A stretch of 64,000 nt of DNA from Maricaulis sp. (GTDB lineage Bacteria > Pseudomonadota > Alphaproteobacteria > Caulobacterales > Maricaulaceae): positions 123,304-187,303 of the forward strand of contig NZMJ01000117.1 of NCBI GenBank assembly GCA_002692855.1, given 5' to 3'. A model generated the notes under the pieces. That model searched no databases and was not told the origin of the DNA. It saw only the letters and a list, made by a program, of their open reading frames with translations. Position 1 is the first letter of the stretch. Each line of letters starts with the position of its first letter. A program made the translations under genes and the position numbers. Below are positions 46,864 through 52,978 of this stretch, one piece after another.

Positions 46864-48066
46864 TCAATAAACCTCGAACAGGCCTGCCGCGCCCATGCCG
46901 CCGCCGATGCACATCGTGGACACGACATATTTCGCGCCGCGCCGCTTTCCCTCGATCAGGGCGTGGCCGACCATGCGTGCGCCCGACATGCCATAGGGGT
47001 GGCCGACCGAAATCGCGCCGCCATTGACGTTCAGTATGTCATTCGGGATGCCCAGCTTGTCGCGGCAGTAAAGCACCTGCACCGCGAACGCTTCGTTCAG
47101 TTCCCACAGGCCGATATCGTCCATCGTCAGGCCGTTGGCCTTGAGGAGTTTCGGCACAGCGAACACCGGCCCGATGCCCATTTCGTCCGGCTCGGTGCCC
47201 GCGACCGCGATCCCGCGATAGGCGCCGAGCGGTTTCAGGCCGCGCTTTTCGGCTTCCTTGGCTTCCATCAGAACGCTGGCCGAGGCTCCGTCCGAGAGCT
47301 GGCTGGCATTGCCGGCGGTGATGAACTGTCCTTGCTTGATCTCCTGCCCCCCGGCGAAGACCGGTTTCAGACTGTTGAGCCCTTCAAGCGTGGTTTCGGG
47401 ACGATTGCCCTCATCCTTTTCCAGACAGGTATCGACGATGGAGATTTCCTTCGTCTCCTTGTTCATCACACCCATTTTTGACGCCAGAGGCACGATTTCG
47501 TCGTCGAACTTGCCTGCTGCCTGCGCGGCGGCGGTCCGCTGCTGGCTTTGCAGCGCGTACTCGTCCTGCGCCTCGCGGGAAATGCCATAGCGCGCACCGA
47601 CGACCTCGGCGGTTTCCAGCATCGACATGTAGATCGCCGGAACATGCTCGTTCAGCCACGGATCGAAGGCCCGGTGGATATTCATGTGCTCGTTCTGGAC
47701 GAGCGAGATGGATTCCAGACCGCCGCCGACCGTCACCGTCATGCCGTCCGAGATGATCTCCTTGGCGGCGACCGCGATGGCCATCATGCCGGACGCGCAC
47801 TGACGGTCGACCGTCATCCCCGCCACCGTGACCGGCAACCCGCCGCGCACCAGGCATTGCCGCGCCGTGTTCTGGAAGGTCGAACCCTGCTGCATCGCCG
47901 CGCCCATGATGACGTCGTGGATTTCCTTCGGGTCGACGCCTGAACGCTCCACGGCGTGCTTGATCGCGTGCCCGCCCAGCTCCTGCGCCTGGGTGTTGTT
48001 GAACGCCCCGCGATAGGCGCGGCCGATCGGTGTGCGGGCGGTGGAAACAATGACGGCTTCGCGCAT
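46864..48066 (-). CDS. Acetyl-CoA acyltransferase (thiolase)
   Basis: [79 protein letters not shown]. aaaggag SD upstream of ATG at 48066. Confidence 0.95.
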
Positions 48067-48125
48067 GGCGGGCTCCTTTGGAAATTCGGGTATGCACTTC
48101 AACGCCGCCCGCAATGAAGATCAAG

Positions 48126-48155
48126 CCACGGATTTGATCAGCCGAGTTTCACGCC
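48126..48155. repeat. 30-bp direct repeat, left copy (att-like; remnant of an SDR 3' end)
   Basis: ccacggatttgatcagccgagtttcacgcc; reverse complement reads ggc gtg aaa ctc ggc tga = GVKLG*. Confidence 0.85.
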
Positions 48156-48244
48156 GTTTTTATAGGAGTTGAAGCAACAAGAATCATTCCACGATATTCC
48201 ATCTGATCAAGTTGCGGACGCAAACACGTCTGACGGAAAATCGA

Positions 48245-51200
48245 ATGTCCACCTCGGAGTGCAAGGTAAACTGGAGCATGCATGATCCAGAGACTGAACC
48301 CGACGTTTCGCTTGCAGATCTTGAGCGCCTATTCGCGGCTATGTCACCGCCTCAAACTTTATCGAACGCTTTAGAGAAGCAACCGGTCATTCGAGCCACA
48401 TTCGCTTCGCAAAATTGTGAGAGACTGGTAGGCGCCCTTGCAGGTTTGTCCACCGAGCCTCGGCTCCAGGCAAACATCACCCGAATTGATTGGGCGATCC
48501 GGTTTGCCTTGGCGTTCTCACGGGGTCGCAAGTCACTGCGATCAAAGACCATCAGCGACATTCTTAATCGGGCCTTCGATGCTGCAAGGATCAGCGTTCT
48601 TGAGGATCCGGTAGAAAGTCCCTTTATCGAGCGCCTCGCCACCTCCCGAGGAGACCGGCTGATTATCGGTGGATTATGGGAAAGTGCCGGTTTCTATAGC
48701 GAATGCACGCTGCGCGCCTTCGAGGCGCTACCCGAGCACGATATCAAGACCGCCGCACTTGATCGCTCCTATGCCCTGCTGCGGCTCTCGCATGAAATCG
48801 CTCTGCGCACGGGTTACCCACCCAATGTGCCAGGTGGCGGCGAGCCCTCTGGTGCGGTGAGAGTGCCAAATGAGGCCAAACTTCGCACCTTAGCGAAACG
48901 CGTTCGATTTACCTTTGATGATTTGGAACGCATGGGAATCGACCGCGACGATCTACTTCCCTTCGTCCTGCGAGAAGAAGCCACCGCTCACCTCATAGAC
49001 AGTGAGATCGGCAATTCACCGCTTGAGTTTTTGCCGCTCATGCCGGTCGGTGATGGCCTGATCGTCACTGCGCCACAAAACCTGACAACCGCGATGAGAG
49101 CGGACTTAATCACCACCGCCATTGATAGCGGCATGAAAGAAGGGTTTCAGCGGGCGCTGCTTTTCACCCAATCCGATGCACTCAAATCAACCCATTTTTT
49201 GGGTAATTTCCCAGCGCAATACCGCGACAACGGCGAGTTGCCTCGTCTTGAGATCCTTAGCGCTATGCCATCCGGCTACTGGATGCACCTCGTCCAATTG
49301 ATTGACGGGTTCGACGATTGGCCAGAGCAAGCTTTCGCCTCCACCACAACGCTCGGCGAAACCCAGGTTCAAACCCTCCGTAAGTCCGTCACATCCACAC
49401 GGGAATGGTGTGAAAAGCAGCCTGGTTTTATCGAAGGCATCACTGTCGTTCTTCCCTGCGGTGTTGGCAGAGGATTTTCACTCATCCAGGAAGCAGAAGA
49501 TGAACGTGAAAGCTGGGCGTCTTTATTCATCAGCGCCTCGGACGCCCTTACCATTGGGCTGGTAGAGCATGGCGAATTCAACGATGTCTGGCGCTTGGTG
49601 AAATTGGCCGACTTGACCGAGGCAATGGGCTTCCAAGTCTTTTCCGCCAATGGCTGGCTCAACACCTTTCAATGGTGGAAGGACAACAAGTTCAAGCTTG
49701 TCCCAGAAAACCAGCTCGATCTCGCTCCGCCATCCTTAATCAACTTCGATACAAACCTCCTTCTCAGGACACGGCTCGAGGCGATCAAAGCAGCCGACTA
49801 CCGAACCTTGATGCATCCCACTAAGGGAATTCGCCCTGTCTTCAGAATGTCGCGATCGCCACGGGGGGCAGACTATGATGTGCTTTACGCCGATATCGAA
49901 GCCATCGACATCCTCGTGCCGCGCGCGGCGGCTCGGGTCGGCGCCACAGTATGGTGGATTGAGTTGGAAACCAGTGAATACGGAAAGCGTGTTCCTGATG
50001 AGATATTTAGAACGTGGGACGGGCTAACGCACTGGGCTGCAAAGTGCTTGAAGCACGTGAGCGAACAATTTCAGCTTGGCGAAGATCAAATTGAGATCGT
50101 GCTGACAATTGCACCTTCACCTCCACCTCCGGTCCGTTCCGCAGACGCAATCTCTATAGAAGAAACAGTCTCGCTAAGGTGCGATCCCGATGGTCGTTCT
50201 TGTAAAATCGAATTGAGCGCCGATTGGCACAGGTTCCTTTTCCGTCCTGACAATCTCGCAGAACGGCACGTTGCCGCGCGCTTCATAGAGGCCTACTTCC
50301 GGCTGATCGGCATAGGCACTGACGGGGTAGATTTTGATCAGCTGGCTCTATCTGCTGTCGGGTCTCCTAACTATCGTTGGCGGCACATTATTGAGGCCAA
50401 GACTCCGGTCGAGCATATCAAACACTCAGGCCTCGCAGGCGAGTTTCGAGAGATATCCCCTTCCGCCGGCACGCTCGTCCAATTCAGTTCGTGTTGGAAA
50501 GTGCGAGCTCGCGAAGACGGCCCCCGGATTGAAGGCCGGGACGACTGTCTTCGGTTCGCAAGCCAATACTACGGTCATTTGCTCGACACGCTGATCACTC
50601 GTGCGCGCGGATACGACCGCGAAGCCATCCTTGGCTATGCACTAGCCGCCCTGCAATCTGCAGAAGGGGAGCTCTCTCACTGGTCGGCCACAGCTAGCGC
50701 AATGCGCGCGATCCATGGTGTGGAAGGTGATCAAGAACTGAGCATGGAACGACGATCTGAAGCTTACGGTGTCATCCGCTCATCCTCAATCATATTGGAG
50801 ATCGCGCACAGCGAAGCCGGAAAAGATGGTGACCGGATCCCAGGACATCTCGACTTTGAGGAACTCCAGGCGCTCGCATTAATGGTTTTTGAAGTGGCCG
50901 ACCTCAACGCCGGCATCGCTTACAATCAGATCGAGTCGCGCATCCACATCTCACCGACAGGCGAACTCCTCTCAAATCACGAGTTCGAGGAGCGGACGCT
51001 TCAAGTCTCGGGACAACAGATCAATCTCAGGAATCGCCTAACGGATGCGGAACGCTACATCGCTCGATTCCAAGAAAAAGAGACTTCGGAGCCCGAGGCC
51101 ACCTTTTCACGGGCAGTAGAAGCTGAGTTCGGAACACCATGGGAAGGCGTGGTCGATCTCTCAATCGCATCAGCTCATGTCGCAGATGAACGCCGGGAGG

Positions 51201-52045
51201 GAATTCTTAAACTCCGGAAATCGGAGTTGGTCGCCGAGCTGGCGAAGTTCGAACCGCTGAAAGGTGTTGACCTCGCGCCGGCGATTGATCGCCTTTCGAT
51301 GATCCGCAGACCGTCGTGGCTCGAGCGCCCCAATGACTGGACGCCCAACGATATCGATCTAGGGCGCTTGGGCAGACGCTTTGCGCCGATATCTCGGCCG
51401 ATTGTGCCGCTTGATGAAGATGACGACCCGCTTCTCCTGATCTCCCCCGCTGCTATTTTCCGAAGCGTCATGTTCTCCCTCGGTGGCGCTATGGATGGTT
51501 CGCTTCAAAACGAATATTGGCTATCAAGGGAAATGCGGCACTATTCGAGCAATGCCGGGCGCCTTGCGGGAAATCGCTTCAATCAGCGCGTTGCAGACGC
51601 TTTGAGCGCTTTAGGGTTGGAAGCCCAGGCGGAGGTCAAGCCAAGCGCATGTTTGAACGTCAAAGCGACTCCCGAGGTCAAGAAGCTCGGCGACATCGAT
51701 TCACTTGCTATTGACCGGGTGGCCAACACCGTGTGGATCGTCGAAGCAAAAGATCTGCAGGTTTGCAGAACGCTAGGCGAAGCTGCGCGCAGGCTTTCCG
51801 ATTACCGAGGCCTCATTGATGGGCGCGGTCAACGCGACAAGCTTAGGCGCCACCTCGACCGCGTTTCTTTCATACGCGCGAACGCGCACCTCTTGTGCAA
51901 GCGCTTAGGCCTTACCTCGACACCTACTGTGAAAGGCCTTGTCATCGTCCGAGCACCCCAGCCCTTCGCAGACATGGCGGTGACGGTTGGCGAAGATGCA
52001 CGCAGCGTGATGTTTGAGGAGCTTGAAGACTTTTTTGGCCGCTGA
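48245..52045 (+). CDS. Large (~1267 aa) protein of unrecognised family with C-terminal PD-(D/E)XK-like nuclease motif; candidate defence/nuclease protein
   Basis: Continuous ORF (track start is TTG 48212; ATG at 48245, MSTSECKVNW). C-terminus: GNRFNQRVADALSALGLEAQAEV...LGDIDSLAIDRVANTVWIVEAKD (D-x14-E-x-K; codons about 51692-51754). No Walker A motif noticed. Confidence 0.75.
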   Translation: MSTSECKVNWSMHDPETEPDVSLADLERLFAAMSPPQTLSNALEKQPVIRATFASQNCERLVGALAGLSTEPRLQANITRIDWAIRFALAFSRGRKSLRSKTISDILNRAFDAARISVLEDPVESPFIERLATSRGDRLIIGGLWESAGFYSECTLRAFEALPEHDIKTAALDRSYALLRLSHEIALRTGYPPNVPGGGEPSGAVRVPNEAKLRTLAKRVRFTFDDLERMGIDRDDLLPFVLREEATAHLIDSEIGNSPLEFLPLMPVGDGLIVTAPQNLTTAMRADLITTAIDSGMKEGFQRALLFTQSDALKSTHFLGNFPAQYRDNGELPRLEILSAMPSGYWMHLVQLIDGFDDWPEQAFASTTTLGETQVQTLRKSVTSTREWCEKQPGFIEGITVVLPCGVGRGFSLIQEAEDERESWASLFISASDALTIGLVEHGEFNDVWRLVKLADLTEAMGFQVFSANGWLNTFQWWKDNKFKLVPENQLDLAPPSLINFDTNLLLRTRLEAIKAADYRTLMHPTKGIRPVFRMSRSPRGADYDVLYADIEAIDILVPRAAARVGATVWWIELETSEYGKRVPDEIFRTWDGLTHWAAKCLKHVSEQFQLGEDQIEIVLTIAPSPPPPVRSADAISIEETVSLRCDPDGRSCKIELSADWHRFLFRPDNLAERHVAARFIEAYFRLIGIGTDGVDFDQLALSAVGSPNYRWRHIIEAKTPVEHIKHSGLAGEFREISPSAGTLVQFSSCWKVRAREDGPRIEGRDDCLRFASQYYGHLLDTLITRARGYDREAILGYALAALQSAEGELSHWSATASAMRAIHGVEGDQELSMERRSEAYGVIRSSSIILEIAHSEAGKDGDRIPGHLDFEELQALALMVFEVADLNAGIAYNQIESRIHISPTGELLSNHEFEERTLQVSGQQINLRNRLTDAERYIARFQEKETSEPEATFSRAVEAEFGTPWEGVVDLSIASAHVADERREGILKLRKSELVAELAKFEPLKGVDLAPAIDRLSMIRRPSWLERPNDWTPNDIDLGRLGRRFAPISRPIVPLDEDDDPLLLISPAAIFRSVMFSLGGAMDGSLQNEYWLSREMRHYSSNAGRLAGNRFNQRVADALSALGLEAQAEVKPSACLNVKATPEVKKLGDIDSLAIDRVANTVWIVEAKDLQVCRTLGEAARRLSDYRGLIDGRGQRDKLRRHLDRVSFIRANAHLLCKRLGLTSTPTVKGLVIVRAPQPFADMAVTVGEDARSVMFEELEDFFGR

Positions 52046-52048
52046 AAA

Positions 52049-52078
52049 CCACGGATTTGATCAGCCCAGCTTCACGCC
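52049..52078. repeat. 30-bp direct repeat, right copy, overlapping the 3' end of the SDR gene
   Basis: ccacggatttgatcagcccagcttcacgcc; reverse complement reads ggc gtg aag ctg ggc tga = GVKLG*. Confidence 0.85.
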
Positions 52079-52978
52079 AAGATGCTGCGCAGCATAGCCG
52101 AGGAATTTCAGCGTCTGCCCTGAGCCGTCGGTCAGTTCATCCTGGCCGTCGGCGTTCAGGATGGCATCGATGTTTTCCGCGACCTTGTCCGGCGTCTGCT
52201 CTTCCGGCGGCAGGTAGATTCCCTTCGTCTCATAGACCCGGGTGGCGGCATAGCCGCCTGCCCCGGCCGCCAGGATGGTGCGCTTGGGCGCATCCTCGCT
52301 GACGAGATAGACAAGGCCCGCCGACACGCTTTCCGGCGTCATCAGTTTCAGGGCCGCCTCCGGGATCAGCCCCTCGGTCATGCGGGTGTGCGCGGTCGGG
52401 GCGAGCGTATTGACGCGGATGTCGTATTTCGCGCCTTCGATCTGCAACACATTCATCAACCCGACGAGGCCCATCTTCGCGGCCCCGTAATTCGACTGGC
52501 CGAAATTGCCGTAGAGCCCGGACGACGACGAGGTCATGGCGATACGGCCATAGCCGCGCTCCTTCATGTGCTCCCACACCGCCTTGGTGCAGATCATCGA
52601 GCCCATCAGGTGAACGTCCACCACCAGGCGGAAATCCTCGATTGTCATTTTCGAGAACGACTTGTCGCGAAGAATGCCGGCATTGTTCACGAGGATGTCC
52701 ACCGCGCCATAGGCCGCGATGGCTTGCTCGACCATGTCGGCAACTTCGTCGGGCTTGGTGACGTTCGCGCCATGCGCCATCGCCTTGCCGCCTGCGGCCG
52801 TGATCTCGTCCACGACCGCCTGCGCAGCGGAAGCGGATGCGCCCTCGCCATCCACGCCCCCGCCCAGATCGTTGACGACGACGTTGCAGCCACGCGCGGC
52901 CAGCATCAGCGCGTGGCTGCGCCCCAGGCCATTGCCGGCCCCCGTGACGATGGCGGTGCGTCCGTCAAACCGGATCAT
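52061..52978 (-). CDS. Short-chain dehydrogenase/reductase (MFE-type 3-hydroxyacyl-CoA dehydrogenase-like)
   Basis: AIVTGAGNGLGRSHALMLAARGCNVVVNDLGGGVDGEG; SNYGAAKMGLVGLMNVL; HTRMTEGLIPE. Confidence 0.93.
   Translation of the reverse strand: MIRFDGRTAIVTGAGNGLGRSHALMLAARGCNVVVNDLGGGVDGEGASASAAQAVVDEITAAGGKAMAHGANVTKPDEVADMVEQAIAAYGAVDILVNNAGILRDKSFSKMTIEDFRLVVDVHLMGSMICTKAVWEHMKERGYGRIAMTSSSSGLYGNFGQSNYGAAKMGLVGLMNVLQIEGAKYDIRVNTLAPTAHTRMTEGLIPEAALKLMTPESVSAGLVYLVSEDAPKRTILAAGAGGYAATRVYETKGIYLPPEEQTPDKVAENIDAILNADGQDELTDGSGQTLKFLGYAAQHLGVKLG

What the first reader, a model, noticed from the sequence alone, without database searches (positions are those of the whole stretch)
48245..52045. ~1267-aa protein of unrecognised family with a C-terminal PD-(D/E)XK-like nuclease motif: candidate single-gene defence system
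The last ~170 residues contain GNRFNQRVADALSALGLEAQAEV ... LGDIDSLAIDRVANTVWIVEAKDLQV. This is the D-x(n)-ExK core with an upstream amphipathic helix, typical of PD-(D/E)XK nucleases. The preceding ~1000 residues match no family I can name and show no Walker A motif. A very large protein with a terminal nuclease, alone in a mobile islet, resembles known solitary nuclease defence genes (e.g. Shedu) in logic but not in visible sequence.
Basis: partly seen in the sequence, partly recalled or inferred. Interest (0 to 1): 0.8.

Follow-up and report, generated by a model that had tools for sequence, protein, structure and literature searches.

The report
Divergent Upx phage-defence nuclease, single-gene islet
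The large gene is a distant but full-length relative of Upx, an already known one-gene bacterial anti-phage protein with a nuclease at its end, and it sits alone in a small inserted DNA segment bracketed by a 33-base repeat; it is a new member of a known family, not a new kind of system.

Summary
The ORF is real (48245-52045, +, 1266 aa, 55% GC against about 64% around it) and ends in a PD-(D/E)XK nuclease. The family is not unknown. Over nearly its whole length the protein matches Upx: PADLOC Upx 1e-118, NCBIfam NF042954 "anti-phage protein Upx" 3e-139, and PDB chain 9wuf_A at 3e-76. Foldseek names 9wuf "Cryo-EM structure of Upx" and matches both AlphaFold models to it (residues 1-1100, E 2e-58, TM 0.81; residues 941-1266, E 4e-19, TM 0.74). 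D1152, E1167 and K1169 are invariant in all complete homologues. The protein is divergent: 465 bits against NCBI's cut-off of 1900, closest fetched relative 46% identical, in a well-supported three-member clade with long branches. Relatives show the empty SDR-thiolase junction, and the islet holds no recombinase; the genome search found only XerC/XerD-type recombinases. The mechanism (sensing by the body, DNA cleavage by the C-terminal nuclease) is inferred. New member of a known kind.

The parts
48245..52045 (+). Divergent upx homologue, 1266 aa (alternative upstream TTG start at 48212)
51545..52042 (+). PD-(D/E)XK nuclease domain, about residues 1101-1266 (D1152, E1167, K1169; invariant F1112, G1124, G1149, E1179, H1203, R1206)
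48245..51544 (+). Body of Upx (residues 1-1100), mixed alpha/beta with a long helical region at about 765-940; invariant EDPxExxF at residues 120-127; proposed sensor/scaffold
   Evidence: the function is inferred
48123..48155 (.). Left (distal) copy of the 33-nt direct repeat, a displaced copy of the SDR gene's 3' end
52046..52078 (.). Right copy of the direct repeat; it holds the last five codons and stop of the SDR gene and starts directly after the upx stop codon
48156..48244 (+). 89-bp leader of upx inside the islet (no sigma-70 consensus promoter found)
52061..52978 (-). SDR-family dehydrogenase whose 3' end is the insertion site; intact
46864..48069 (-). Thiolase (acetyl-CoA acyltransferase), directly downstream of the SDR gene in relatives with the empty site

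Best explanation
The gene encodes a divergent Upx, a single-protein anti-phage defence enzyme. Shown here: full-length sequence and fold homology to Upx, an intact PD-(D/E)XK active site, horizontal acquisition as a one-gene islet inserted at the 3' end of an SDR gene, and homologues that lie among restriction-modification genes, other defence genes and integrases. Inferred: the roughly 1000-residue body detects or binds a phage-associated feature (invading DNA, a DNA-end or replication structure, or a phage protein) and licenses the C-terminal metal-dependent nuclease to cut DNA. No ATPase domain was recognised and no partner gene is present, which points to a direct nuclease rather than a translocating enzyme. 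Whether it cuts phage DNA (restriction-like) or also host DNA (abortive) is not settled. The islet most likely arrived through site-specific recombination between attachment sites that carry the SDR 3' end, by an integrase acting in trans or since lost.
For: PADLOC Upx, E 9.9e-119 over residues 37-1234. NCBIfam NF042954, E 3.3e-139 over residues 44-1235. PDB 9wuf_A, E 3.4e-76, with the D and ExK residues and the EDPxExxF motif conserved. Foldseek: residues 1-1100 against 9wuf, E 1.7e-58, TM 0.81/0.74; residues 941-1266, E 3.9e-19, TM 0.74; other weak hits of the C-terminal model include PD-(D/E)XK enzymes (EndoMS, Card1, Can2, Bse634I, MspJI). Invariant catalytic residues. Tree: clade of window + L034 + L035 with 100/100 support. 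Defence neighbourhood of homologues: type I R-M, MADS mad2, type IV REase, PbeA, phage integrases; nSTAND3 NTPase and T4SS coupling protein beside L034, tyrosine integrase beside L035. Islet: direct repeat 30/33 against at most 21/33 in shuffles; empty junctions in L008, L010, L014; repeat found only twice in the genome and in none of 59 relatives. Published surveys place Upx in genomic islands and ICEs (PMC12629846; PMC12824646).
Against: Divergence: 465 bits lies well under NCBI's equivalog cut-off of 1900, and identity to the solved Upx is only about 21-23%, so equal function is not guaranteed. No defence neighbours in the window itself; the flanking genes are metabolic or housekeeping. No biochemical data on Upx could be read: Gao et al. 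2020 is not held and no paper on 9wuf was found. Trigger and substrate are unknown.
Confidence: 0.88

Rival explanations
1. It is a Upx-fold protein that has diverged to another target or function, for example defence against plasmids or other mobile elements, or a methylation-dependent restriction-like enzyme, rather than phage defence like characterised Upx.
For: Low identity to canonical Upx, below the NCBI equivalog cut-off; long stem of the window clade; its closest relative (L034) sits beside a T4SS coupling protein, suggesting a conjugative element.
Against: All conserved motifs, the full architecture and the fold are kept; no domain gained or lost.
Confidence: 0.2
2. A solitary nuclease of another known defence family (Shedu, or a type IIS/type IV restriction enzyme) with an unusual long N-terminus.
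For: Terminal PD-(D/E)XK domain; a weak, poorly superposed Foldseek hit to FokI (E 0.0096).
Against: Upx is the only PADLOC family hit; no Pfam hit; 9wuf is the only PDB match at E<=0.001, by sequence and by fold.
Confidence: 0.02
3. A decayed or inert remnant without function.
For: No resident integrase; single copy; absent from relatives.
Against: Intact 1266-aa frame and all invariant residues kept.
Confidence: 0.05

Closest known systems
Upx anti-phage protein (PADLOC PDLC02221, NCBIfam NF042954.1, PDB 9wuf)
   Same: Length (1266 vs 1272 aa), collinear over about 1190 residues, same fold, same D...ExK nuclease core and EDPxExxF motif, single gene in mobile DNA
   Different: Only about 21-23% identical; 465 bits against a 1900-bit equivalog cut-off; in a separate clade with a Rhodospirillales MAG protein (L034, 46%) and a Stygiobacter MAG protein (L035, 36%)
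Shedu (single-protein nuclease defence)
   Same: Works-like: solitary protein with a PD-(D/E)XK nuclease
   Different: No Shedu model hit in PADLOC; different size and body (the latter from general knowledge)
EndoMS/NucS, Card1/Can2 and other PD-(D/E)XK nucleases
   Same: Nuclease fold, weak Foldseek hits (E about 0.1-1)
   Different: Unrelated accessory domains; no CARF domain recognised in this protein

Membership tests
Upx | Full-length match to curated Upx profiles | tested here: met
   PADLOC 9.9e-119, NCBIfam 3.3e-139, each over about 95% of the profile
Upx | Score above NCBI's curated equivalog cut-off (1900 bits) | tested here: not met
   465 bits. This is the threshold for NCBI's automatic naming; none of the 385 genomes of the class searched passes it, L029 included at 934 bits. 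It lowers 'functionally equivalent Upx', not 'homologous Upx-family protein'
Upx | Same three-dimensional fold as solved Upx | tested here: met
   9wuf, TM 0.81 (N-terminal model) and 0.74 (C-terminal model)
Upx | C-terminal PD-(D/E)XK active site | tested here: met
   D1152, E1167, K1169 invariant; aligned with 9wuf
Upx | Stand-alone gene | tested here: met
   No other gene in the islet 48123-52078
Upx | Protects against phage when expressed | not testable with these tools
   needs experiment
Shedu | Match to Shedu profile | tested here: not met
   no Shedu hit in PADLOC with the limit set at E=10
Integrase-borne genomic island | Direct repeats at gene 3' end plus empty site in relatives | tested here: met
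Integrase-borne genomic island | Recombinase gene inside the element | tested here: not met
   only upx inside; the tyrosine recombinases found in the genome are XerC/XerD-like, and no PF07508 protein was found

The most novel reading that the evidence does not exclude
The islet is a minimal, non-autonomous mobile defence cassette: one gene plus one attachment site carrying a gene 3' end, with no room for anything else (the repeat starts directly after the upx stop), spread by recombinases acting in trans. The two coding-part mismatches between the repeat copies are synonymous (both copies encode G-V-K-L-G-stop), consistent with the second copy coming from another lineage's SDR gene. In addition, the window/L034/L035 clade may be a Upx subtype with its own trigger.
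Probability: 0.25. Interest if true: 0.5.

Novelty: new member of a known kind. Interest (0 to 1): 0.3.

Why it matters
It places a divergent Upx in a genome of a group where the family is rare (none in 98 other relatives searched; 3 of 385 genomes of the class, this one included). It shows that Upx can travel as a one-gene islet rather than as part of a large defence island, and gives precise boundaries and an invariant residue list for tests. It also shows that NCBI's strict cut-off leaves Upx homologues like this one unnamed.

Tried and rejected
Unrecognised family: rejected by PADLOC, NCBIfam and PDB. Shedu or an ordinary restriction enzyme: no hit. Phage-borne: no relative in 50,697 phage records, one at 24% identity in the viral-contig scan. 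A resident integrase for the islet: only XerC/XerD-like tyrosine recombinases and no large serine recombinase found. Attachment site in viral contigs: none. A similar bracketing repeat around other homologues: none clearly above background; the best is a 16-nt match at L046, more than 1 kb from the gene on both sides. Foldseek on the 1-1100 model to name the body's domains: nothing credible besides Upx itself. Papers on the 9wuf structure or the Upx mechanism: none held.

Full report
Observation. The window has an intact ORF at 48245-52045 (+), 1266 aa from ATG, with an alternative TTG start at 48212. Its GC is 55.4% and GC3 59%, against about 64% and 81-90% for most neighbours.

Identity. PADLOC gives a single hit, Upx (9.9e-119, residues 37-1234). 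NCBIfam gives a single hit, NF042954 'anti-phage protein Upx' (3.3e-139, 465 bits, cut-off 1900). The only PDB sequence hit is 9wuf_A 'Restriction endonuclease' (3.4e-76, residues 51-1240). Foldseek lists 9wuf as 'Cryo-EM structure of Upx', released 2026-02-11. AlphaFold models built from window and locus homologues (residues 941-1266, pLDDT 85.8; residues 1-1100, pLDDT 84.7) both have 9wuf as their only match at E<=0.001 (TM 0.74 and 0.81). This is a full-length Upx-family protein.

Active site. In the C-terminal model residues 1095-1122 form a helix, followed by strands 1126-1131, 1151-1157 and 1162-1169, a helix at 1177-1185 and a later strand at 1228-1235. D1152 lies on the second strand, E1167 and K1169 on the third: the classical PD-(D/E)XK arrangement. 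These three residues, with F1112, G1124, G1149, E1179, H1203 and R1206, are invariant in all complete homologues. A second invariant block, EDPxExxF (residues 120-127), lies in the N-terminal body and is also present in 9wuf; its role is unknown. Beyond Upx itself, the C-terminal model has weak matches that include PD-(D/E)XK nucleases (EndoMS, Card1, Can2, Bse634I, MspJI). The body has no credible other match.

Relatives. A genome scan gave 25 loci and a viral-contig scan one. The closest are L034 (Rhodospirillales MAG, 46%) and L035 (Stygiobacter MAG, 36%); nearly all others are 21-27% identical. The window, L034 and L035 form a clade with 100/100 support on a long stem. The protein is absent from the other 98 genomes of a 99-genome set of relatives, and the family was found in 3 of 385 genomes of the class, the window's included. 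Neighbours of homologues include type I R-M, MADS, type IV restriction and PbeA genes and phage integrases; L034 lies beside a T4SS coupling protein and an nSTAND3 NTPase, L035 beside an arm-binding tyrosine integrase. Published surveys also place Upx in PAGI-1 hotspot 6 of Pseudomonas (PMC12629846) and, with qatABCD, in an ICE/IME of Vibrio europaeus (PMC12824646).

The islet. A 33-nt direct repeat (30/33) lies at 48123-48155 and 52046-52078. Shuffled flanks give at most 21/33. The right copy begins directly after the upx stop codon and holds the last five codons and stop of the minus-strand SDR gene. The left copy encodes the same G-V-K-L-G-stop with two synonymous differences. In L008, L010 and L014 the SDR and thiolase genes are 41-47 bp apart with nothing between them, so the islet is a precise insertion of about 3.9 kb that restores the gene end. 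The repeat occurs only twice in the genome and in no other of 60 genomes searched. The islet has no recombinase. The tyrosine recombinases found in the genome are XerC/XerD-like by size and context, and no large serine recombinase was found. No comparable bracketing repeat was found around other homologues. The simplest reading is an integrase acting in trans or since lost; a cargo-only mobile cassette is possible but not shown.

Mechanism. Inferred: the body senses or binds a phage-linked feature and licenses the C-terminal nuclease to cut DNA. The trigger, the substrate, and whether the response is abortive are unknown. That Upx was discovered by Gao et al. 2020 and shown there to protect E. 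coli is from my own knowledge; the paper is not held, although PMC10855318 lists Upx under nucleic acid degradation and cites a reference for it.

Verdict. The nuclease and defence interpretation is right in kind, but the claim of an unrecognised family is wrong. New member (divergent clade) of a known kind.

Noticed in passing
window 48123-48155 and 52046-52078: 33-nt direct repeat (30/33) duplicating the SDR gene's 3' end and exactly bracketing upx; the two mismatches in the coding part are synonymous. A one-gene integrase-less islet.
   Followed up: partly
G000 contigs C35 and C172, C8: Two XerC-like matches with identical scores on different contigs (C35, C172), a 4.07 Mb assembly against 2.2-2.8 Mb in the genus and 5.9% contamination suggest a duplicated or mixed assembly; the SDR-thiolase pair on the window's contig C155 is also paired in relatives.
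   Followed up: no
window 48602-48625 (protein residues 120-127): Invariant EDPxExxF motif in the N-terminal body of all Upx homologues, of unknown role: a candidate second functional site.
   Followed up: partly
L034:13102-16941 and L034:1189-2829: The closest homologue lies beside an nSTAND3 NTPase and a T4SS coupling protein on a 20-kb contig: probably a conjugative element with defence cargo.
   Followed up: partly
L040, L051, L054: Upx homologues whose frame is interrupted within the matched stretch (as assembled): possible pseudogenes or sequencing errors.
   Followed up: no
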